Assembly: GCF_025399895.1 (NCBI RefSeq)
Contig: NZ_JAODUA010000009.1
Span: forward strand, 186,001 to 250,000
DNA: 64,000 nt
Origin: Streptomyces sp. ASQP_92
Lineage (GTDB): Bacteria > Actinomycetota > Actinomycetes > Streptomycetales > Streptomycetaceae
Reading direction: 5' to 3'
Shown: positions 3-63,652 of the stretch, in pieces
Layout of the letters: each line of letters opens with the position of its first letter
Numbering within the stretch: the first letter of the stretch is position 1
Notes under the pieces: model-generated
What the model was told of the DNA's origin: nothing
What the model saw: the letters and a program-made list of their open reading frames with translations, nothing else
Database searches by the model: none
Made by a program: the position numbers and the translations under genes

Positions 3-902
3 CGCGACGAGCTCGCTTCGTACGAGCGGCTGCCCGCGCGGTGGCAGGGGCAGGTCGACGAGTTGCCGGGCGAGCCGTGGCGGGCCGACCGCTTCTCGTA
101 CGCCACCGCCGTGCTGGAGCTGTACCGGACGCTGCTCGCGCTGCCCGCGATCGAGCCGGCGGGGCCCGCGCCGGGGGCGTCGGGGGCGGCCGGGCTCGGC
201 CCGCCGGTGCACGGCGAGCCGAAGACGCTGGCCCGCATCAGGGCGCTGCTCGCCAAGGCCGAGGCGACCGGCTTCCCCGAGGAGGCGGAGGCGCTCACCA
301 CCAAGGCGCAGGAGCTGATGGCGCGGCACAGCGTGGACGACGCGCTGCTCGCCGGGCGTGGGCTCTCGCCGGGCGGCGAGGTGCCGGGGGCCTGCCGGAT
401 CGGGGTGGACGCGCCCTACGAGACGGCGAAGGCGATCCTGCTCGACGCGGTCGCGTCCGCCAACCACTGCCGGGCGGTGTGGAACTCCGCGCTCGGGTTC
501 TCGACGGTCGTCGGGTTCGAGGCGGATCTGGAGGCGGTGGAGCTCCTGTACACCTCCCTCCTCGTGCAGGGTACGACCGCGATGGCCAAGGCCGAGGCGG
601 CGCAGCGGGCGGGTGGGCGGCGCCGCACCAAGACGTTCCGGCAGTCGTTCCTGCTGGCGTACGCCGCCCGGCTCGGCGATCTGCTCGCGGCGGCGGCGCG
701 GGGGGTGGAGGAGTCCTTCGGGGGTGAGCTGCTTCCGGTGCTGGCGTCGCGGGCGGTGGCGGTCGGGGGGCGGGCGGAGGAGATGTTTCCGCGGACGGTG
801 GCTACGCGGGTGCGGGGGGTTTCCGACGAGTCGGGGTGGCGGGACGGCCGCGCGGCAGCCGACCGGGCCCACCGCACCCGCACCCCGGGCCTACCCCTCT
901 GA
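3..902 (+). CDS. DUF2786 domain protein, 5' end outside window
   Basis: The frame is open from base 3 with no start in view, so the N-terminus lies upstream; about 299 residues are visible. A segment encoded near 220-350 has the DUF2786 pattern: a helical start reading LARIRALLAKAEAT, then a Glu/Ala-rich helix, then QELMARHSVDDALL. The rest is Ala/Arg/Glu-rich without catalytic motifs I recognise. DUF2786 proteins have no established biochemical role. The stop is followed directly by a cluster of interspersed repeats. I am sure this is a gene and sure of the family, but not of any function. Confidence 0.85.
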   Translation, partial: RDELASYERLPARWQGQVDELPGEPWRADRFSYATAVLELYRTLLALPAIEPAGPAPGASGAAGLGPPVHGEPKTLARIRALLAKAEATGFPEEAEALTTKAQELMARHSVDDALLAGRGLSPGGEVPGACRIGVDAPYETAKAILLDAVASANHCRAVWNSALGFSTVVGFEADLEAVELLYTSLLVQGTTAMAKAEAAQRAGGRRRTKTFRQSFLLAYAARLGDLLAAAARGVEESFGGELLPVLASRAVAVGGRAEEMFPRTVATRVRGVSDESGWRDGRAAADRAHRTRTPGLPL

Positions 903-1333
903 CCCCGGTCCCCCCGGCGGGGGCTCCGCCCCCTGCACCCCCGTTCACGCCTTAAGGGCGCTCGTCCTCAAACGCCGGACGGGCTGTAGGTGCCCCAGCA
1001 CCCCCGGGCGGGGGCTCCGCCCCCTGCACCCCCGTTCGCGCCTGAACGGCGCTCGTCCTCAAACGCCGGACGGGCTGAAATGCCTCGATGCGGGCCAGCA
1101 CCAGTACTGCCAGGGGCGCGGGGAACTGCGCGACCAGCCACGCACGGTCCGCAGGCGGAAACGGGTTTTGGGGGCGCGGGGAACTGCGCGAGAAGCGACC
1201 ACGGCCCGCAGACCTAAGGGCCTTTAGGGGCGCGGGGAACTGCGCGACAAGCGGGCACGGCCCGCGGGCCGGAGAGGGGTTGGGGGCGCGGGGAACTGCG
1301 CAAGGCGTGGGGGTGGGCCCAGGGGCGAGGGGG
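903..1333. repeat. Interspersed repeat cluster A (types A and B)
   Basis: Non-coding. Two copies of a type B unit come first, with core CAAACGCCGGACGGGCTG and a hairpin GGGGCTCCGCCCC. Four copies of a type A unit follow, with core GCGCGGGGAACTGCGC; the units start near 1113, 1171, 1227 and 1283. The 56-58-bp period is regular, while the intervening sequence varies around a loosely conserved CACGGYCCGCAG. The same units recur near 9.1, 27.3 and 39.7 kb. The cluster lies 3' of the DUF2786 gene and 5' of the FUSC gene. Confidence 0.9.
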
Positions 1334-1334
1334 T

Positions 1335-1340
1335 TACCCT
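1335..1340 (+). promoter_or_regulatory. Probable -10 element, leaderless FUSC gene
   Basis: TACCCT fits TANNNT and ends 7 nt before the ATG at 1348. No Shine-Dalgarno sequence is present, which suggests that transcription starts at the start codon. I see no clear -35 box. Confidence 0.5.
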
Positions 1341-1347
1341 CGGGATC

Positions 1348-3408
1348 ATGAGCTGGCTCCGCGCGCTGAAAGAGACCGCCCGCTCGGGGCTGACGGTCGA
1401 GCGGCGAAGGCTCGAACCCCTCGTAGCCCTCCGCGGCGCCACCGGCCTCGCCATCGTCGTCGGCGTGAGCCTCACCCTCTTCGGCCCCTCCGTCGCCGCC
1501 AGCTCCGCGTTCGGCGCGTTCCAGGGCGCCATCGCCACGTACCAGCGCAGTTGGCGCCCCAGGCCCGTGCTCGCCCTCGCCTCCGGGCTCTCGCTCGCGA
1601 TCAGTACCTTTCTCGGCTATCTCGTCGGCACCCACTCCCCGTTCTTCCTGCTGCTGCTCGCGCTGTGGACGTTCCTGGCGGGCCTGGCCTGGGCCGTCGG
1701 CCCGACCGTCGGCGTGATCGCCTCGTCGAACGTGGCGATCATGCTGGTCACCGTCACCCTGCCCAGCTCGCTCGCCGAGGCCGCGGGTCACGCCGCGATG
1801 ATCGCGTTCGGCGGGGTCGTCCAGGCCGCCCTCGTCGTCCTGTTCCCCATCCGGCGCTGGGGCGCCCAGCGCGACGCGCTCGCCGACGCCCTCGCCGCCG
1901 AGGCCGACTACGCGCGACGGCTGCGCCACGACCCCGTCGCCCCCTTCGACCCCCAGCCCCTCATGACCGCCCGGCTCGCCGCAGCCGTCACCCCCCGCGA
2001 AGCCCGCCGCAGGCCGTCCGAGCTCCACGGCGCCCGGGGCGTCGCGGAGCGGATCCGGCCGGTGCTCGCCTCGCTCGCGGACCCGGCGCTCGGCGTGCCC
2101 GACGAGGGCGTCGAACGCGACCGGGCCCGGGAGTTGCTCGCCGCCGCGGCCACCGTCCTGGACGCCGCGGCGCGGGCCGTCCGGCACGGCGAGGCACCCG
2201 TCATCCCGCCCGCCGCCGAGGCCGCGCTCGCCACCCCCGACACCGGCGCCATCCTCACCGGCCCGGCCCGCCGCGCCGCCGCCCGGCTCGTCGCCCTGCT
2301 CGCGGACGTCGTCGAAACAGCCCAGGGGAGCGGCCCGGGCGGGGGAGCGAAGCCCCTGCTCAGGCCCACCCTGCCCCGACTGGTCCCGCTCGCCCTGCGC
2401 ACCATGCGCGACGAGCTGGGCCGGCGCCGATCACCGGTGTTCCGGCACGCCGTACGCGTCTGCGCGGTGGCCACGGCGGGCTATCTGCTCGGCCACGTCC
2501 TCCCGTTCGGGCACGGCTACTGGGCCCCGATGGCCTCCGTGATGGTCATGCGCCCGGACTTCACGCTCACGTACTCCCGCGCGGTCGCCCGCTTCGGCGG
2601 CACCCTCGTCGGCGTCGCCCTGGCCACCGGCATCGTCCAGCTCACCCACCCCGACACCGGCCTGTCCGCCGCCATCGCGGTGGTCTGCGCGTTCCTGGCG
2701 TACCTCTTGATGCGCACGGGCTACGCGGTGCTCAGCGGCTGCGTCTCCGCGTATGTCGTCTTCCTGCTCGGCATGGGCGGACTCCAGTGGACGCAGACCG
2801 TGCCCGACCGGGTGTTCCTGACGCTGATCGGCGGCGCGCTCGCCATGGCGTCGTACGCCCTCTACCCGGCCTGGGAGACGCCGCGGCTGCGCACCCGGCT
2901 CGCCGACTGGCTTGCCGCGAGCGGCCGTTACGCCTCCGCCGTCGTCGCCCACTACGCCGACCCCGACCGCGGTTCCGGCGCGGTCCGTCAGGCCCTGCTC
3001 GACACGCGCGCGGCTCGTATCGCCTGGCAGGAGGCGCTTGACAAGGCCACCCATGAGCCGGTGCGCCACCGCGGCCTGTCGCGTTCGGCGGCCGCGGAAG
3101 CCGACCACGCGCTCAGCCAACTGGGGCGTACGGCCATGCTGATGGAGGCGCATCTGCCGGAGCGGGACGCGGTGCCGGTACCCGCGGCCGCGAAGCTCGC
3201 CGAGGCGCTGAGCGAGGCCACCGAGCAGGGCGCGAAGGCGGTGCGCGAGCGGCGGGTCCCGCGGTGGGAGGGGGTGGAGCAGGCCCTGGACGCCTGGGAC
3301 GGCGAGGGCGTGCCCGACCGCGTGGTGCGCAGGGGAGCCGGCCTCGTCCTGCACTGCCTGGACGATCTGACCGACGCCCTCACGCTCCCCAACCCGCCCA
3401 AACCATAA
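1348..3408 (+). CDS. FUSC family inner-membrane protein
   Basis: A 686-residue integral membrane protein of the FUSC / aromatic-acid-exporter-like family. It has the family's duplicated build: a hydrophobic block at about residues 30-165, a long charged cytoplasmic stretch at about 170-340, a second hydrophobic block at about 365-510, and a helical C-terminal domain. Relatives are thought to export aromatic acids or other small molecules, but no substrate can be read here. No ribosome binding site precedes the ATG; a TANNNT hexamer 7 nt upstream suggests a leaderless transcript. It converges on the lipoprotein gene across a short hairpin. Confidence 0.85.
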   Translation: MSWLRALKETARSGLTVERRRLEPLVALRGATGLAIVVGVSLTLFGPSVAASSAFGAFQGAIATYQRSWRPRPVLALASGLSLAISTFLGYLVGTHSPFFLLLLALWTFLAGLAWAVGPTVGVIASSNVAIMLVTVTLPSSLAEAAGHAAMIAFGGVVQAALVVLFPIRRWGAQRDALADALAAEADYARRLRHDPVAPFDPQPLMTARLAAAVTPREARRRPSELHGARGVAERIRPVLASLADPALGVPDEGVERDRARELLAAAATVLDAAARAVRHGEAPVIPPAAEAALATPDTGAILTGPARRAAARLVALLADVVETAQGSGPGGGAKPLLRPTLPRLVPLALRTMRDELGRRRSPVFRHAVRVCAVATAGYLLGHVLPFGHGYWAPMASVMVMRPDFTLTYSRAVARFGGTLVGVALATGIVQLTHPDTGLSAAIAVVCAFLAYLLMRTGYAVLSGCVSAYVVFLLGMGGLQWTQTVPDRVFLTLIGGALAMASYALYPAWETPRLRTRLADWLAASGRYASAVVAHYADPDRGSGAVRQALLDTRAARIAWQEALDKATHEPVRHRGLSRSAAAEADHALSQLGRTAMLMEAHLPERDAVPVPAAAKLAEALSEATEQGAKAVRERRVPRWEGVEQALDAWDGEGVPDRVVRRGAGLVLHCLDDLTDALTLPNPPKP

Positions 3409-3420
3409 GGGGGTTGGACC

Positions 3421-3440
3421 CGCCGCGACGGGGGGCGGCG
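3421..3440. terminator. Hairpin between convergent genes
   Basis: Stem CGCCGC / GCGGCG with an 8-nt loop fills the 32-nt gap between the stop of the FUSC gene and the stop of the convergent lipoprotein gene. It is a plausible bidirectional terminator without a U-tract. Confidence 0.5.
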
Positions 3441-3926
3441 TTACGGGGTCGGCAGGCCGGCGGTGGGGAGTCCGGTCGGCAGCTTCCCCTTCGTGCCGCG
3501 GGTGAAGGTCTCCTTCTTGAAGCCCTCCCAGTCGACCTCAAGCGTGCCGTTGGTCAGCTTGAGCATGCCGCGCGAGCGCTTGTCCTTGTCGTCCCCGTTG
3601 CACTCGCTCATCGTGACCATCGTCATGCCGTCCGCGCTGTCGAACTTTCCGACGCACATGTGGCGCCCGGTGAGGGTCACGGTCTTCTGCGAGGTGAAGA
3701 GGAGGATGACGTCCTTGTCGGTGTCGGAGAACCAGGCCGGGCCCGTGAGATCCCCGGTCTTCACGGTGCCGACGCCATCGGTGCCGGTCGTGGCGGCCCC
3801 GGTGGCCGACGCCCTCGGGGCCGCCTTCTTGTCGCCACCGCCGTCACTGCTCCCGCAACCCGTCAGGACCAGAGCGACCGAGAGCCCGGCCGCGGCGATT
3901 GAGGCGGTACGTATGTGCTTGTGCAT
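3441..3926 (-). CDS. Putative lipoprotein of unknown function
   Basis: 161 residues. The N-terminus is a classical lipoprotein signal: charged MHKHIR, a hydrophobic core and an LTGC lipobox with the lipidated Cys at residue 24. A Ser/Gly/Ala/Thr-rich linker of about 35 residues follows, then a compact beta-rich domain with two further cysteines (near MCVG and SECNG) that could form a disulfide. It should be exported and anchored to the outer face of the membrane. I do not recognise the folded domain. A GGGGGAAG sequence lies somewhat far upstream of the ATG. It is divergent from the DUF397 gene. Confidence 0.8.
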   Translation of the reverse strand: MHKHIRTASIAAAGLSVALVLTGCGSSDGGGDKKAAPRASATGAATTGTDGVGTVKTGDLTGPAWFSDTDKDVILLFTSQKTVTLTGRHMCVGKFDSADGMTMVTMSECNGDDKDKRSRGMLKLTNGTLEVDWEGFKKETFTRGTKGKLPTGLPTAGLPTP

Positions 3927-56317: not shown

Positions 56318-58843
<2,526 letters not shown>

Positions 58844-58865: not shown

Positions 58866-58914
58866 AAGGGACTGCCCCGGCCCGTACGCACCGTACGGGC
58901 CGGGGCAGTCCCTT
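58866..58914. terminator. 23-bp-stem bidirectional terminator
   Basis: A perfect 23-bp inverted repeat (58866-58888 and 58892-58914) with a 3-nt CAC loop, ending in CCCTT followed by TTCG. It separates clpC from the convergent NACHT gene. Confidence 0.85.
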
Positions 58915-58922
58915 TTCGTCGT

Positions 58923-61900
58923 TCAGGGGGCGAGCGGGCCTCCGTTGACGGTGACCGTCAGGCCGGGGCGGCGCAGCAGGGCGCCCGGGTTCCAGGAGCC
59001 CGCCTGGACGGTGCCGACCGCGAGGTCCACCGTCGTCAGCGCCGGGAAGGCAGCGAGGACGGCGCCGAGATCGCCGTCGGAGTTGGCGAGCCACAGGTCG
59101 AGGTGGCGGACGCTCGGCAGCGGGGCCACCCCGGCGAGGGCCGCCACCGAGCTCAGCGCGACGCCGAGCCGGGTGATGCCGGGCCGCCCCCGCACATACG
59201 CCAGGAGCCGCCGGGTGGTCGCCGTGGAGGACGGGGCGAGCTCCAGATAGCTGAGGGCGGGCCAGCGGCTCAGGGCGTCGAAGCCGGAGACCTGGTCGGC
59301 CTCCAGATGCAGGGTGGTGACGCCGTTCAGCACCGGAAGCTGCGCCAGATGGAGATCGGTGCTGCTGCCGAACAGCAGGGTGCGCAGCGCCGGGACCTCG
59401 CCGAGCGGGGACAGGTCGACCTCCTGCGAGGCGACGTCGAGCAGTCCGAGCGAGGTCAGGCGGGGCAGCCGGGCGAGCTGGGTGAGGTCGCGCAGACCCG
59501 AGCCGCGCAGCACCTCCAGATCGGTGAGGCGCTCCGCGCTGTCCCGTAAGAAGGCCAGCCCGGTCAGGCGCTCGGTGCCGTTCAGACGCAGCGCCGCCAC
59601 CTCGCGCCCGCGCAGCGCGGCGTGCAGCTCCTCGGCGGTCAGGTCGGGCGGCACGGTGATCCACAGCCGGCGGGCGCCGGGCACGTGCGGGAGCTGGGCG
59701 AGTTGCCAGCGGGTCTCCACATGCAGCCGGGCCTCCCTCAGATCGAGGTGGGCGAGGACTTCGCGGGCGTAGCGCTCGGCGGGGTAGCGCGACCACTCGG
59801 TGGCGAACAGGTCCACGGCGTCCGGGTGGGCCGCGGACCACGCGCGGGCGTGCTCGATGGCCTCCGCGTTGCCGACCCGGTTGATGAGCCCCACCACGTG
59901 CGCGAGCGCCTCGGGGGAGGCCGTCGCCGGGTCCGGGAGATGGTCGAGGACGGGCGGGCCCAGGCGCGCCAGCAGGGTGACGGTCTCCAGGTCGCGGGGT
60001 GGAAGCAGCGCCGTGATGTGCTCGCGGACCCGGCGGGCGGTGGTCTCGTCGAGGTAGGCGGCGTGCTGGGCGCAGCGCGCCGCCAGCACATGGATCTTGG
60101 CCCTGTCCTGGGGGTTCGGCTGCCGGGAGCCCGCGTCGAGCAGGCCGTTGATGAGGACGGGACGGTCGCGGCGGCCGCAGTGTCCGGCGGCGAGCAGGAT
60201 CACGTCCTGCCACTGCTGTTCCTCCGAGGCGTGCCGAAGGAGTTCGCCCAGGTGCCCGTCCTCGATGAACTCCTTGGCGGCGAGGAAGTCCTGGAAGGTG
60301 CGGTGGGTGAACTGGAAGACGTCGTCGGCGTGTTCCTGGAGGAGTCCGCTGCGGTTGAGGAGGTGGCGCAGCACGTCCTTGGGGGTGCCCTGGCCGCGTA
60401 CGTTCTCCATCCCTGAGAGGGCGCGCTTGAGCTGGCGCAGCGCCTGGTCGCGGGAGAACTCCGACTGTCCCTCGCGCACCAGCCACACCGCGATCCGCTG
60501 GAGCAGCTCGGTGCACTCCTCGGCGCTGATCTGGATGCCTTCGGGCGACTCGACCTTGCGCTGCTGGTCCCGGTTGCCGAGCAGCATCCGCAGGGCGGCC
60601 TCGTACAGCTTCCAGCGGGTGTCGGGCAGGAAGCCCTGGCGCAGCCGGTGCAGGGCGCAGATCACGGCGCAGAGCAGCGGGGTGCGGGCCAGGCCCCGCA
60701 GGGTGCTGTTCTGCTTGAACTGCTCGGACAGGTCGCGTTCCAGCTCGTCGAGGTCCTCGTGCGGGCCGCTGTCGAGCCGGGCCGCGCGGTGCCAGGCGGC
60801 GATGAACGCGGTGATGTCCTCGTCGTTCATCGGGAGCAGTCTGAGCTCCTCGAAGCCCGCGTACTTCAGCCAGTCCGGCTCGACCGCCATCGGCCGTACC
60901 GTCACCACGCAGCGGGTGCGCGGATAGCGGTCCAGGAGGGCGGCGAGCCAGCGGTGCGCCTCCTCACGGTCCTCCTGGGGCACTTCGTCGAGGCCGTCCA
61001 CCAGGAGCAGCGCCCGCCCCGTCTTCAGGACCCGGCCCGCCCAGCCCTCGGGCGCCTCGTCGACCACCAGGCGTGCCGCGGTGGGGAGTTGGGCGGGCAG
61101 CGGGAAGGTGGCGCCCTGGGCGCGCAGGGTGCGCAGCGGTACCACGAAGGGGACCAGCGCGTTGAGGTCCGCCAGCCCCGGTCCGAGCCGTCCGGCCGCC
61201 GCGTGCGCCGCCAGCCACCACACCAGGGTGGTCTTGCCGGCGCCCGCCTCGCCCCGGATGAGGGCCCGGGGGCGGGAGGCGAGCAGGGCGTCGATGCGCT
61301 GCGGGGCGCTGTCCATCAGGGGGCGGCCCGGCTGCGGGGGCTCGGTCGCCTTGGGTCTCGCCTCCAGGCTGAGGTAGGCGGTGTCCAGGTCCCACTCGGA
61401 GTCCCGCTTGTTCAGCTCGTCCAGGCCGAAGATCTTCGTCTTGCGGTACGAGGCGCCGATGGCCTCGGCGTACTCGTGCTCGTAGCGCTGGTCCTGCGGG
61501 GGTACGCCGGTGACGAGTTCGAGGGCGGTCACCGCGGCGAGCGTGGCGAACGCGGCCAGGAAGCCCTCCGAGGCGAAGATGCCCCGCAGCGGCACGCACA
61601 CCACCCGGCGGTGGCCGCGCCCGCGCGGGATCTCCTTGACCAGGCCGAGCAGGGTGGCCGCCGCGAACAGGGGGGCGCCCGACAGGCCCATGAGCGGCGA
61701 GCTGCCGTCGGCGCGCTCGGCGGCCGGGGGCCGGTGCAGTTCGCAGACCAGATCCTGGCGCAGGCTCCCGGCGACCGGCAGGACCGTGCCCACGAACTGG
61801 TCGTAGTCCAGGTGGTGGTCGGCGCCGTAGCGCTGGATGTCGGGGAAGCCGATGATCTCGCAGCCGGGCAGCGACTGGGCGGTGTCGACGGTGCCCAGCC

Positions 61901-62147
61901 GCAGCAGACCCGGCAGTAGCTCCTCGTCGCTGTAGATCAGTGCCGCGTCCAACTCGTCGTCCCGCCACAGGACTTGACCGGTCACCTCGCCGATCGCCGG
62001 ATGGGCGAGGCGGACCGGCGGGGCGCCCACCAGGTTGTGCGCACAGGTCAGCACCAGCCACGGGGAGACGATGACCCCGCTGCCCTGGCAGCCCTCCGAC
62101 AGGATGGCCACGACCCGGTCGGCGGTCGTGGGCGGGGCGGCGCTCAC
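58923..62147 (-). CDS. Trypsin-NACHT-leucine-rich-like NLR-type protein
   Basis: 1074 residues, GTG start, coupled to the upstream gene by a 4-nt overlap. Domains in order: trypsin-like protease (about 1-215) with probable triad His37 in LTCAHNLV, Asp67 in ELDAALIY and Ser156 in GLSGAPLF; linker; NACHT ATPase (about 280-640) with Walker A GEAGAGKTTL (299-308) and Walker B LLLVDGLDE (380-388); FTHRTFQDFLAAKEF winged-helix motif; a helical region; and a C-terminal stretch of about 250 residues with LRR-like repeats. This is the plan of bacterial NLR-like defence proteins, where the repeat region senses and the protease acts. The activity is inferred, not shown. Confidence 0.85.
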   Translation of the reverse strand: MSAAPPTTADRVVAILSEGCQGSGVIVSPWLVLTCAHNLVGAPPVRLAHPAIGEVTGQVLWRDDELDAALIYSDEELLPGLLRLGTVDTAQSLPGCEIIGFPDIQRYGADHHLDYDQFVGTVLPVAGSLRQDLVCELHRPPAAERADGSSPLMGLSGAPLFAAATLLGLVKEIPRGRGHRRVVCVPLRGIFASEGFLAAFATLAAVTALELVTGVPPQDQRYEHEYAEAIGASYRKTKIFGLDELNKRDSEWDLDTAYLSLEARPKATEPPQPGRPLMDSAPQRIDALLASRPRALIRGEAGAGKTTLVWWLAAHAAAGRLGPGLADLNALVPFVVPLRTLRAQGATFPLPAQLPTAARLVVDEAPEGWAGRVLKTGRALLLVDGLDEVPQEDREEAHRWLAALLDRYPRTRCVVTVRPMAVEPDWLKYAGFEELRLLPMNDEDITAFIAAWHRAARLDSGPHEDLDELERDLSEQFKQNSTLRGLARTPLLCAVICALHRLRQGFLPDTRWKLYEAALRMLLGNRDQQRKVESPEGIQISAEECTELLQRIAVWLVREGQSEFSRDQALRQLKRALSGMENVRGQGTPKDVLRHLLNRSGLLQEHADDVFQFTHRTFQDFLAAKEFIEDGHLGELLRHASEEQQWQDVILLAAGHCGRRDRPVLINGLLDAGSRQPNPQDRAKIHVLAARCAQHAAYLDETTARRVREHITALLPPRDLETVTLLARLGPPVLDHLPDPATASPEALAHVVGLINRVGNAEAIEHARAWSAAHPDAVDLFATEWSRYPAERYAREVLAHLDLREARLHVETRWQLAQLPHVPGARRLWITVPPDLTAEELHAALRGREVAALRLNGTERLTGLAFLRDSAERLTDLEVLRGSGLRDLTQLARLPRLTSLGLLDVASQEVDLSPLGEVPALRTLLFGSSTDLHLAQLPVLNGVTTLHLEADQVSGFDALSRWPALSYLELAPSSTATTRRLLAYVRGRPGITRLGVALSSVAALAGVAPLPSVRHLDLWLANSDGDLGAVLAAFPALTTVDLAVGTVQAGSWNPGALLRRPGLTVTVNGGPLAP

Positions 62148-62485
62148 CGCGGGCCGGCCGCGAAGCCTCCGCCCGGCCGGGGGTTGTGGACCTTCCAGGC
62201 GGAGCCGTCGGCGGCGGTGTGCGGCTTCAGGGTGAAGGACACCCTGTGCGTACGCCCCGTGACGCGCCCCGCGTCGGCGCCCGCCTCCACCACCCAGGCC
62301 CGGGCCTTGAGGCCGCCCCTGCGTTCCTTGCGGAGCTCGAACGTGAACTCCATCTGGATGTCGCCGAGCTCGAAGACCAGCGGCTCCCCGGCGCCTCGGG
62401 CGGCGGCCTCGATGAGCTGCTCGCGTACGGACTCGATGGCGTCGGCGAGTTCGATCCCGTCCGCGTCATGGCTGTCGTCGGTCAT
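62144..62485 (-). CDS. Trypco2-like trypsin-co-occurring protein
   Basis: 113 residues from ATG at 62485 with GAGGGGGAA upstream. It has the pattern of the Trypco2 domain: IELADAIESVREQLIEAAARG in part, VFELGDIQMEFTFELRKE and VEAGADAGRVTGRTHRVSFTLKP in part. Trypco domains are defined by gene pairing with trypsin-containing conflict-system proteins. The stop overlaps the protease-NACHT start by 4 nt, so the two are translated together. It may regulate, recruit or be a substrate of the protease. Confidence 0.75.
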   Translation of the reverse strand: MTDDSHDADGIELADAIESVREQLIEAAARGAGEPLVFELGDIQMEFTFELRKERRGGLKARAWVVEAGADAGRVTGRTHRVSFTLKPHTAADGSAWKVHNPRPGGGFAAGPR

Positions 62486-62986
62486 GTCTGTTCCCCCTCG
62501 CTCACCCCAAGTCTCTCTCTGAGTACGGGAGTTGGGACAGGGGTGGGAGGGGTCGGGAGGTGCCGACCCGGACGGCCCGGGGGTGCCGGCCCGGACGGTC
62601 TGGGCGGGCGGCCCGTGCGCGCGGGGCCCGCGGGCCTGGGCGGGCGGCCCGCGGCGGGGCCCACGGCGCGGCCACGCCATGGGTTGCGTGCCGTTGGTCC
62701 TGAAAAGGAAGGGCTTAGGTCCCGGTTGCGGTGACAAGGCGCACAGGAGATCAGGGGCCTACTAGGTGCCTTAGGGGCCGTTGGGGCGTATTTACCCTTA
62801 TATCGCCTATTCCCCTTCTGATCGTTACGGCTTTCCTTCGTAGATGGGCGTTTTGGGCGGAGATGGAGTCACGCGCTACCAAGGTGAGGTCGACCCGGTG
62901 TGCCGCTGTGCGTGCCGGGTCCGCGCATGCCGCCGGATCCCACTCGGCGGCGATCCCCTGTCGCCGTACGAAAGAGTTCTCCCCGC
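62486..62986. other. 500-bp region between Trypco2-like and M23 genes
   Basis: No convincing gene. 62558-62660 is low complexity with direct repeats of GGTGCCGRCCCGGACGG and GGGCGGGCGGCCCG. 62780-62840 is relatively AT-rich (GTATTTACCCTTATATCGCC) and is the likely promoter region of the M23 gene. I looked for a c-di-AMP (ydaO) riboswitch, which often precedes cell-wall hydrolase genes in Streptomyces, and found no matching core. Confidence 0.5.
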
Positions 62987-63652
62987 ATGTCCCAGCGCAC
63001 CTCGTCCCAGACCGTCCGCCCCTCCGCCGCCCGGCTGCGCGCCCTGGCGGTCTCCGTCGTCGCGACGGGAGCGGGGGCCGCCACGCTCCTCGGCGCGGGC
63101 GTCGCGGCGGCCGACGAGGCCAGCGCCCTGCCGCTCGCCGCGACCACCGTCACCACCAGCGCCGTCGCCGACCAGGCCAAGGCGCAGGGCAAGGCCGCGG
63201 CCACCGCGCGACAGGCCGCCGCGGCCAAGGCCGCCTCCTGGGTGCAGCCGGTCGCGCGCTACACGCTGAGCGCGAGCTTCGGTCTGGGCGGCTCGATGTG
63301 GTCGCACAAGCACTCCGGCCAGGACTTCGCCGTGCCCAGCGGCACCCCGGTCTCCGCCGCGCACTCCGGCACCGTCGTGAAGGCCGGCCCGGTCGGCGCC
63401 GGTGACGGCCCCGCGTACGGCAACGCGATCGTGATCCGGCACGCCGACCACACGTACTCGCAGTACGCCCACCTGTCCCACATCGGCGTACGCGTCGGCC
63501 AGCGCGTGGCCACCGGCGAGCGGATCGCGCTGTCGGGCAACACCGGCAACTCCAGCGGCCCGCACCTGCACTTCGAGATCCGTACGACGCCGAACTACGG
63601 CTCGGCCGTCAACCCGGTGGCCTTCCTGCGGACGGTGGGCGTCACGGTCTGA
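62987..63652 (+). CDS. M23-family (LytM) peptidase
   Basis: 221 residues. A secretion signal (RLRALAVSVVATGAGAATLLGAGVAAADE in part) and an Ala/Lys-rich helical linker precede a LytM domain with zinc ligands in HKHSGQDFAVP and GPHLHFEI, and HADHTYSQYAHLS between. It should cut peptidoglycan cross-links outside the cell. ATG at 62987 is chosen because the signal peptide starts there; GAAAGAG lies upstream. An in-frame start at 62900 would add 29 polar residues. Confidence 0.9.
   Translation: MSQRTSSQTVRPSAARLRALAVSVVATGAGAATLLGAGVAAADEASALPLAATTVTTSAVADQAKAQGKAAATARQAAAAKAASWVQPVARYTLSASFGLGGSMWSHKHSGQDFAVPSGTPVSAAHSGTVVKAGPVGAGDGPAYGNAIVIRHADHTYSQYAHLSHIGVRVGQRVATGERIALSGNTGNSSGPHLHFEIRTTPNYGSAVNPVAFLRTVGVTV

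What the first reader, a model, noticed from the sequence alone, without database searches (positions are those of the whole stretch)
58923..62485. Two-gene Trypco2 + trypsin-NACHT-repeat operon: probable NLR-like defence system
Seen: a 113-residue Trypco2-like protein overlaps by 4 nt a 1074-residue protein with an intact-looking His37-Asp67-Ser156 protease triad, Walker A GEAGAGKTTL, Walker B LLLVDGLDE, a NACHT winged-helix motif and LRR-like repeats. Known: trypsin and Trypco domains recur with STAND/NACHT ATPases in predicted bacterial conflict systems, and bacterial NACHT proteins have been shown to block phage. Inference: the repeats sense a phage or stress product, NACHT oligomerises, and the protease is released to cut a target. 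I am not aware of this pair in Streptomyces being characterised. What the protease cuts, and whether Trypco2 is an inhibitor, adaptor or substrate, is open.
Basis: partly seen in the sequence, partly recalled or inferred. Interest (0 to 1): 0.88.

Follow-up and report, generated by a model that had tools for sequence, protein, structure and literature searches.

The report
Protease-armed NLR beside Streptomyces clpC
A Streptomyces genome carries a bacterial relative of animal immune receptors that is fused to its own protein-cutting enzyme and made together with a small partner protein, in a chromosomal spot where related species carry a different receptor or none, which suggests an exchangeable bacterial immune locus.

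Summary
Window 58923-62147(-) encodes a 1074-aa protein: HtrA/trypsin-fold protease (H37-D67-S156), NACHT ATPase, helical repeats, LRR. Window 62144-62485(-) encodes a Trypco2 protein, overlapping it by 4 nt. The model matches NLRC4/NOD2/NLRP3 over residues 214-1070 and HtrA proteases over 6-203. The triad is kept in all aligned relatives that cover it, except one with a deletion.

Of 118 Streptomyces slots examined, 18 hold protease-NACHT with Trypco2, 42 a NACHT gene with another N-terminus (41 scored as NNH1), 52 no intact NACHT hit (3 of them relics), and 6 end at contig borders. In the slot the NACHT genes all point toward clpC. Some slots hold both kinds as pairs in one order. The LRR region diverges far faster than NACHT, under purifying selection. 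Trypco2 follows the protease onto other STAND backbones, twice more in this genome.

Best reading: an NLR-like receptor whose C-terminus senses, NACHT oligomerises and the protease executes, with Trypco2 as partner. Defence itself is inferred. A new variant of a known kind (bacterial NLR/STAND); not a CARD-NLR, Avs1, Lamassu or VMAP system.

The parts
62144..62485 (-). Trypco2 gene, 113 aa: N-terminal helix (13-32) and four strands; first gene of the pair
   Evidence: Pfam PF19631 90.2 bits; AF2 model mean pLDDT 64.5, low confidence
62144..62147 (-). 4-nt overlap (GTGA) of Trypco2 stop and NACHT start: probable translational coupling
   Evidence: a start giving exactly 4 nt is available in 36 of 53 loci listed, the window's included
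58923..62147 (-). protease-NACHT-helical repeat-LRR protein, 1074 aa, GTG start
61539..62132 (-). HtrA/trypsin-fold protease domain, residues 6-203, triad H37-D67-S156
   Evidence: fold match Z about 20 to HtrA/Deg/MarP; triad conservation
60708..61295 (-). NACHT ATPase core, residues 285-480, Walker A 299-308, Walker B 380-388
   Evidence: Pfam PF05729; NLRP3 7alv Z 24.9, rmsd 3.8, 422 aligned, model 220-739
60228..60707 (-). winged-helix/HD region, residues about 481-640
   Evidence: model secondary structure; as conserved as NACHT
59748..60227 (-). helical repeat region, residues about 641-800
   Evidence: model
58938..59729 (-). LRR region, residues about 807-1070, most variable part
   Evidence: PDB internalin/Roco LRR matches; model; 37% mean identity against 83% for NACHT in 12 slot proteins
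58868..58912 (.). 20-bp-stem hairpin between the convergent clpC and NACHT genes; terminator-like on the + strand
   Evidence: folding z -8.3
56318..58843 (+). clpC, left border of the slot (convergent)
   Evidence: Clp_N and AAA domains; 93-98% identical in the 119 other genomes with a clpC-level match
62900..63652 (+). M23 peptidase gene, right border of the slot; present with and without a NACHT gene
   Evidence: Pfam PF01551 109 bits

Best explanation
An NLR-like intracellular immune receptor with a protease output. The C-terminal LRR (and helical) region senses an invader-derived or infection-altered molecule; the NACHT ATPase switches and oligomerises; the N-terminal HtrA-type protease is switched on by being clustered and cuts a target, halting growth or killing the infected hypha. 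Trypco2, probably made by coupled translation, is most likely a protease-side adaptor or regulator (about 0.45 if the rest holds). The locus is an NLR slot next to clpC in which receptor genes with different N-termini are gained, lost and paired. Shown here: architecture, intact motifs, slot, patchiness, decay, sensor divergence, association of Trypco2 with the protease. Inferred: trigger, oligomerisation, substrate, cell outcome, and the role of Trypco2. The confidence is for the receptor-with-protease-output core; the first two rivals share that core and differ only in what Trypco2 does.
For: Fold match to NLRC4 (Z 26.5), NOD2 (26.3) and NLRP3 over 214-1070 and to HtrA proteases over 6-203. 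Motifs kept (in the 61 proteins of A3 H 61, D 61, S 60). Slot survey of 118: class A (protease) 18, class B 42, no NACHT hit over threshold 52 (3 with relics), unresolved 6; no slot NACHT in the opposite orientation. Mean identities in 12 slot proteins that I chose: protease 71, NACHT 83, winged helix 81, helical 54, LRR 37%. dN/dS 0.01-0.37 in all domains and all 15 pairs of 6 near relatives, so the gene is maintained. On a quick NACHT tree the protease label needs 5 changes, 3 forced by well-supported branches, suggesting exchange of the N-terminus. Trypco2 is followed on the same strand by a trypsin-type domain in 25 of 32 loci, 8 of them with this kind of NACHT within the 1.5 kb flank. Precedent: trypsin-like proteases fused to Avs1, Hachiman and Lamassu proteins (PMC12799240, passages); a catalytic-serine mutant of LypA did not restore lysis (PMC13236601, passages).
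Against: No experiment. No dN/dS above 1. Neighbours are housekeeping genes, not a defence island: of ten window ORFs given to PADLOC, three had hits, all to shared HTH or AAA domains. No PADLOC model covers the whole protein. No relative in viral contigs. Broken copies exist (L047, L050, L074, L078, L079, L086); some may be assembly errors. The M23 neighbour also evolves fast (56% against 97.5% for ClpC), so LRR divergence may be relaxed constraint rather than an arms race.
Confidence: 0.62

Rival explanations
1. Same receptor, but Trypco2 is the pro-effector: the activated protease cuts Trypco2, and the cut form does the damage, as the upstream nuclease is activated in Avs1/Hachiman pairs.
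For: Gene order resembles the published nuclease-protease pairs (separate, typically upstream gene; [quoted passage not shown]). Trypco2 precedes the protease on several backbones (25 of 32 loci). The model has a low-confidence stretch (65-77) within a conserved part of the family.
Against: No other family or fold match for Trypco2 (the model is poor). Protease-NACHT genes without a Trypco2 gene in front keep their triad (L035), so another substrate must exist there.
Confidence: 0.25
2. Same receptor, but Trypco2 is an inhibitor or antidote that keeps the protease off until infection.
For: Translated first, coupled, small and co-inherited; its distances track the protease's after correction for the other domains (partial r 0.25, 0 of 500 permutations as high; 48 loci).
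Against: Slot operons of S. sp. ERV7, S. melanogenes and S. sp. CBMA152 have protease-NACHT with no Trypco2 hit, an NNH1-NACHT gene standing directly upstream in its place. The largest partial correlation is with the helical region (0.41, no permutation test run), not the protease.
Confidence: 0.2
3. Not immune: a signalling or developmental NACHT regulator (proteolytic checkpoint), beside clpC because both belong to protein quality control.
For: Fixed core-genome position beside clpC among housekeeping genes; HtrA-type proteases are usually quality-control enzymes (recalled); purifying selection.
Against: Absent or replaced in most slots of the same genus; relics (L126, L156, L183); fast sensor divergence; further copies without clpC in the flank.
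Confidence: 0.15
4. Decaying or inert selfish locus with no present function.
For: Several broken copies.
Against: dN/dS well below 1 in every domain among six near relatives; triad and Walker motifs intact across the aligned family.
Confidence: 0.04

Closest known systems
Bacterial NACHT / NLR-related antiphage proteins (bNACHT; Kibby 2023 recalled, not held; bNACHT25, PMC12169576, passages read)
   Same: N-terminal effector, central NACHT, C-terminal sensor
   Different: In the passages read the effectors are a PD-(D/E)XK nuclease (clade 6) or none discernible (clade 14); here an HtrA-type protease, an LRR sensor and a Trypco2 partner
Trypco2-trypsin pairs of VMAP ternary conflict systems (PMC7159879, passages read)
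   Same: Trypco2 gene beside a trypsin-like peptidase
   Different: There the peptidase sits on VMAP with MoxR and vWA components; here it is fused to a NACHT-LRR receptor
Nuclease-protease pairs of Avs1, Hachiman, Lamassu (PMC12799240, passages read)
   Same: [quoted passage not shown] protease part hits LmuA
   Different: Upstream partner is Trypco2, not an MBL-fold nuclease
CARD-NLR systems (LypABC, PMC13236601, passages read)
   Same: Trypsin-like peptidase working with an NLR-like ATPase
   Different: There a CARD-bearing peptidase and a separate NLR-like protein; here one polypeptide without a CARD
NNH1-NACHT proteins of Streptomyces (Pfam PF22733)
   Same: Same slot; about 35-44% identical over NACHT and beyond in the rows
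   Different: NNH1 helical N-terminus instead of protease

Membership tests
NACHT/NLR-type STAND receptor | NACHT ATPase with Walker A and B | tested here: met
   Pfam 80.6 bits; motifs invariant; NLRP3/NLRC4 fold match
NACHT/NLR-type STAND receptor | C-terminal LRR sensor | tested here: met
   Pfam LRR below cut-off
NACHT/NLR-type STAND receptor | ATP-dependent oligomerisation | not testable with these tools
   needs purified protein
bNACHT antiphage protein | protects against phage | not testable with these tools
   none
Trypco2 | PF19631 above cut-off | tested here: met
   90.2 against 24.2 bits
Trypco2 | gene beside a trypsin-like peptidase | tested here: met
   25 of 32 Trypco2 loci
VMAP ternary system | peptidase on a VMAP protein with MoxR and vWA genes | tested here: not met
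   no VMAP or vWA match in the protein; slot borders are clpC and an M23 gene; clpC has AAA domains but is ClpC
CARD-NLR system | CARD on the protease, separate NLR-like protein | tested here: not met
   protease fold begins near residue 6 and is fused to NACHT
Avs1 / MBL nuclease-protease pair | MBL-fold nuclease gene upstream | tested here: not met
   upstream gene is Trypco2 with no MBL match at E<=1
Lamassu (LmuA) | full-length LmuA | tested here: not met
   LmuA profile matched over the protease part only, profile 14-190 of 425

The most novel reading that the evidence does not exclude
The clpC-M23 slot is a bacterial NLR cluster in the plant sense: one chromosomal slot in Streptomyces where receptors with exchangeable N-termini (protease with Trypco2, or NNH1) are swapped, decay and are kept as adjacent, partly translationally coupled sensor-helper pairs in one fixed order (NNH1-NACHT first, protease-NACHT next to clpC, in 11 of 11 slot loci holding both), with Trypco2 plus HtrA-type protease acting as a portable effector cassette shared with other STAND backbones.
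Probability: 0.35. Interest if true: 0.78.

Novelty: new variant of a known kind. Interest (0 to 1): 0.62.

Why it matters
If right, it gives a bacterial counterpart of two features associated with eukaryotic NLRs (recalled): fixed genomic clusters with presence/absence variation, and paired receptors. It also names a protease-plus-Trypco2 cassette whose role (adaptor, substrate or inhibitor) is open, and points to natural Trypco2-less operons that make that question directly testable. S. griseus, a much-used laboratory species (recalled), carries the locus (L224).

Tried and rejected
Rejected: chance ORF (Pfam, fold and conservation agree). Rejected: membership of VMAP, CARD-NLR, Avs1 or Lamassu systems (see membership rows). 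Rejected: positive selection among near relatives (no dN/dS above 1). Rejected as strict rules: 'Trypco2 always goes with this protease-NACHT' (6 of the 78 loci show no hit by my HMM; one of them, L262, is cut by a contig end; the upstream copy of the class A tandems L046 and L078 also shows none in front) and 'always beside clpC' (16 of 78 without clpC in the flank, some at contig ends). Led nowhere: fold search with the Trypco2 model (no PDB match at E<=0.001, poor model); viral contigs; the literature search for NNH1 (unrelated papers); promoter scan (0 found); papers holding both 'clpC' and 'NACHT' (0). Ambiguous: partial correlations of Trypco2 distances are larger for the helical region than for the protease. 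Of two long NACHT-free slots looked into, L186 gave no Pfam match in two ORFs and L113 holds a D-Ala-D-Ala carboxypeptidase.

Limits: the 121 slot genomes were drawn by the tool; 3 were not examined (G001, whose best match is paralogue-level, and G078 and G119, with clpC at a contig end). Slot calls use my own HMMs built from classes A and B with a 100-bit threshold, so diverged NACHT genes may be counted as absent; some counted class A and B genes are frameshifted. The 59 aligned class A proteins and the 78 loci were picked by similarity to this protein and partly repeat genomes (L035/L217 and L049/L239 are 100% identical). Phylum searches use a loose first look and can miss relatives. The tree is a quick one with long branches flagged by the tool, and three label changes may be one gain and two losses. 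The 32 Trypco2 loci come from 53 rows, mostly the best-scoring one per genome, not a random draw; 'other backbone' there means no such NACHT hit within 1.5 kb. In one search seven of ten ORFs had no Pfam match, several being wrong frames; redid the neighbours with codon-based ORF choice.
Full report
Observation. The larger protein has NACHT (80.6 bits) and the smaller is Trypco2 (90.2 bits). The stop of Trypco2 and the GTG start of the NACHT gene share GTGA. A start with exactly this 4-nt overlap is available in 36 of the 53 loci listed, the window's included; the others have small gaps or overlaps, frameshifts, no start in the list, or Trypco2 downstream.

Architecture. AlphaFold2 on an alignment of 61 proteins (the window's and 60 relatives) gave mean pLDDT 83.5, pTM 0.61. 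Residues 214-1070 match NLRC4 (4kxf, Z 26.5, 675 aligned, rmsd 13.0, so the domains are arranged differently), NOD2 (Z 26.3) and the NLRP3 NACHT region (7alv, Z 24.9, rmsd 3.8, 422 aligned). Residues 6-203 match HtrA/Deg proteases and mycobacterial MarP (Rv3671c, 3k6y, Z 20.1, rmsd 2.1). The N-terminus is thus an HtrA-type member of the trypsin fold. Pfam does not see it in this protein but does in relatives. The triad is H37-D67-S156: H 58, D 58, S 59 of 59 aligned class A proteins, the rest gaps; in the 61-protein alignment H and D 61, S 60, the exception (L285) having a deletion. Between winged helix and LRRs lies a helical repeat region.

Where it sits. In many relatives the operon lies between clpC and an M23-peptidase gene (62 of the 78 loci have clpC in the flank, a set chosen by similarity). 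I searched clpC in 121 Streptomyces genomes and examined 118 slots. 18 hold protease-NACHT (class A) with Trypco2: 15 singly, 1 as a tandem of two class A genes (L078), 2 together with class B; at least four of them are broken by a frameshift or stop (L047, L050, L074, L078). 42 hold class B only: 41 with an NNH1 hit over threshold (one, L198, also with an orphan Trypco2) and L209, cut by a contig end, just under it. 45 have no NACHT and a median clpC-M23 distance of 1.4 kb (742-3443); 3 have only relics, one of them a decayed Trypco2/protease/NACHT (L126); 4 show no NACHT within 13 kb and no M23 hit; 6 end at a contig border. No NACHT gene in the slot had the other orientation. NNH1 was confirmed by Pfam in four of five class B proteins scanned (L095 and L104 from slots, L093 and L098 elsewhere); the fifth (L110, not from a slot) showed none. 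The wider neighbourhood is housekeeping: NAD and pantothenate-type enzymes, a two-component system, clpC; PADLOC hits there are to shared HTH or AAA domains only.

Pairs. In 11 slot loci that hold both classes the NNH1-NACHT gene comes first and the protease-NACHT is next to clpC (L035, L049, L054, L060, L213, L215, L246, L249, L256, L285, L287; the repeats L217 and L239 left out; in L035 and L285 no M23 hit was seen). In S. sp. ERV7 (L035/L217) and S. melanogenes (L215) the NNH1-NACHT stop overlaps the protease-NACHT start by the same 4 nt and no Trypco2 is found; in S. sp. CBMA152 (L256) the gap is about 18 nt, again without Trypco2; in S. lincolnensis L4 (L249) other sequence lies between and Trypco2 is missing too. 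In the others a Trypco2 gene stands between the two. Outside the slot, L286 has the two classes in the reverse order about 2.2 kb apart.

Evolution. In 12 slot proteins that I chose as a close set, mean identity is 71% protease, 83% NACHT, 81% winged helix, 54% helical region, 37% LRR; over all 59 aligned it is 45, 59, 59, 35 and 28%. Against the 11 other loci of that set the window's ClpC is 97.5% identical, its M23 neighbour 56.1%, Trypco2 61.6% and the NACHT protein 52.5%, so the M23 gene also evolves fast and divergence alone does not prove an arms race. Among six near relatives (the window's and five at 89-94%; S. xanthochromogenes, S. violascens and others) dN/dS is 0.01-0.37 everywhere, 0.01-0.06 in NACHT and 0.08-0.23 in the LRRs: the gene is kept, and the sensor is less constrained. 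On the NACHT tree the main class A clade (56 A and one unlabelled, frameshifted copy) is well supported, while further protease-NACHTs lie among class B; the label needs 5 changes, at least 3 forced, but the tool warns of long branches.

Trypco2 goes with the protease. This genome has three Trypco2 genes. The other two precede a 1402-aa protease-STAND_TPR protein (PADLOC STAND_TPR 390 bits) and a 983-aa protease-AAA/NACHT-TPR protein. In 32 Streptomyces Trypco2 loci, 25 have a trypsin-type domain directly downstream on the same strand, 8 with this kind of NACHT and 17 without such a NACHT hit in the flank; 6 have no trypsin hit within 1.5 kb and 1 has one upstream on the other strand. Relatives of the NACHT protein at E<=1e-20 appear in 5 of 296 actinobacterial genomes drawn, all Streptomyces, three of them class-B-like matches only. 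Trypco2 appears in 3 of 149 (all Streptomyces), but also in 2 of 14 control genomes, Bacteroides ihuae and Methanosarcina acetivorans, so the family is not confined to Streptomyces. NNH1 occurs in 16 of 61 genomes of the family, 7 of 17 genera.

How it likely works, and literature. The closest mechanistic precedents are protease-fused defence proteins whose protease activates a separately encoded nuclease (PMC12799240) and a CARD-NLR-like system in which a peptidase-serine mutant does not restore lysis (PMC13236601); both were read as passages only. bNACHT25 (PMC12169576, passages) shows the effector-NACHT-sensor logic. Trypco2 was named in PMC7159879 as a neighbour of trypsin-like peptidases in VMAP systems (passages), and Trypco1/2 recur near DGR-diversified loci (PMC10907252, passages). 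In the held library I found no paper on Trypco2 with NACHT-LRR and none with both clpC and NACHT (search 105); most subscription journals and preprints are not held, so this is weak evidence of novelty.

Verdict. Real, well preserved, and more interesting in its context than in its domains: an exchangeable NLR slot. Defence is the best explanation (0.62) but is inferred.

Noticed in passing
G000:C17 (L108 5676-10179) and G000:C3 (L296 8441-11693): Two further Trypco2 plus protease-STAND pairs in the window's genome, on TPR-type backbones.
   Followed up: partly
L198, next to clpC: Orphan Trypco2 (163 bits) without protease-NACHT, with two NNH1-NACHT genes upstream.
   Followed up: no
L113 10741-12828; L237 3935-5581: The clpC slot can also hold a D-Ala-D-Ala carboxypeptidase gene: S13 by Pfam in L113; in L237 an ORF that looks similar by eye lies between two protease-NACHT genes.
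   Followed up: no
G633:C1:2263798-2270363: Three NNH1 matches within 7 kb on one strand: possible triple NLR cluster.
   Followed up: no
L279: The one record of 78 not labelled Streptomyces (Streptosporangium nondiastaticum); perhaps mislabelled.
   Followed up: no
window 58868-58912: Very stable hairpin between clpC and the NACHT gene (z -8.3), probably a terminator.
   Followed up: partly
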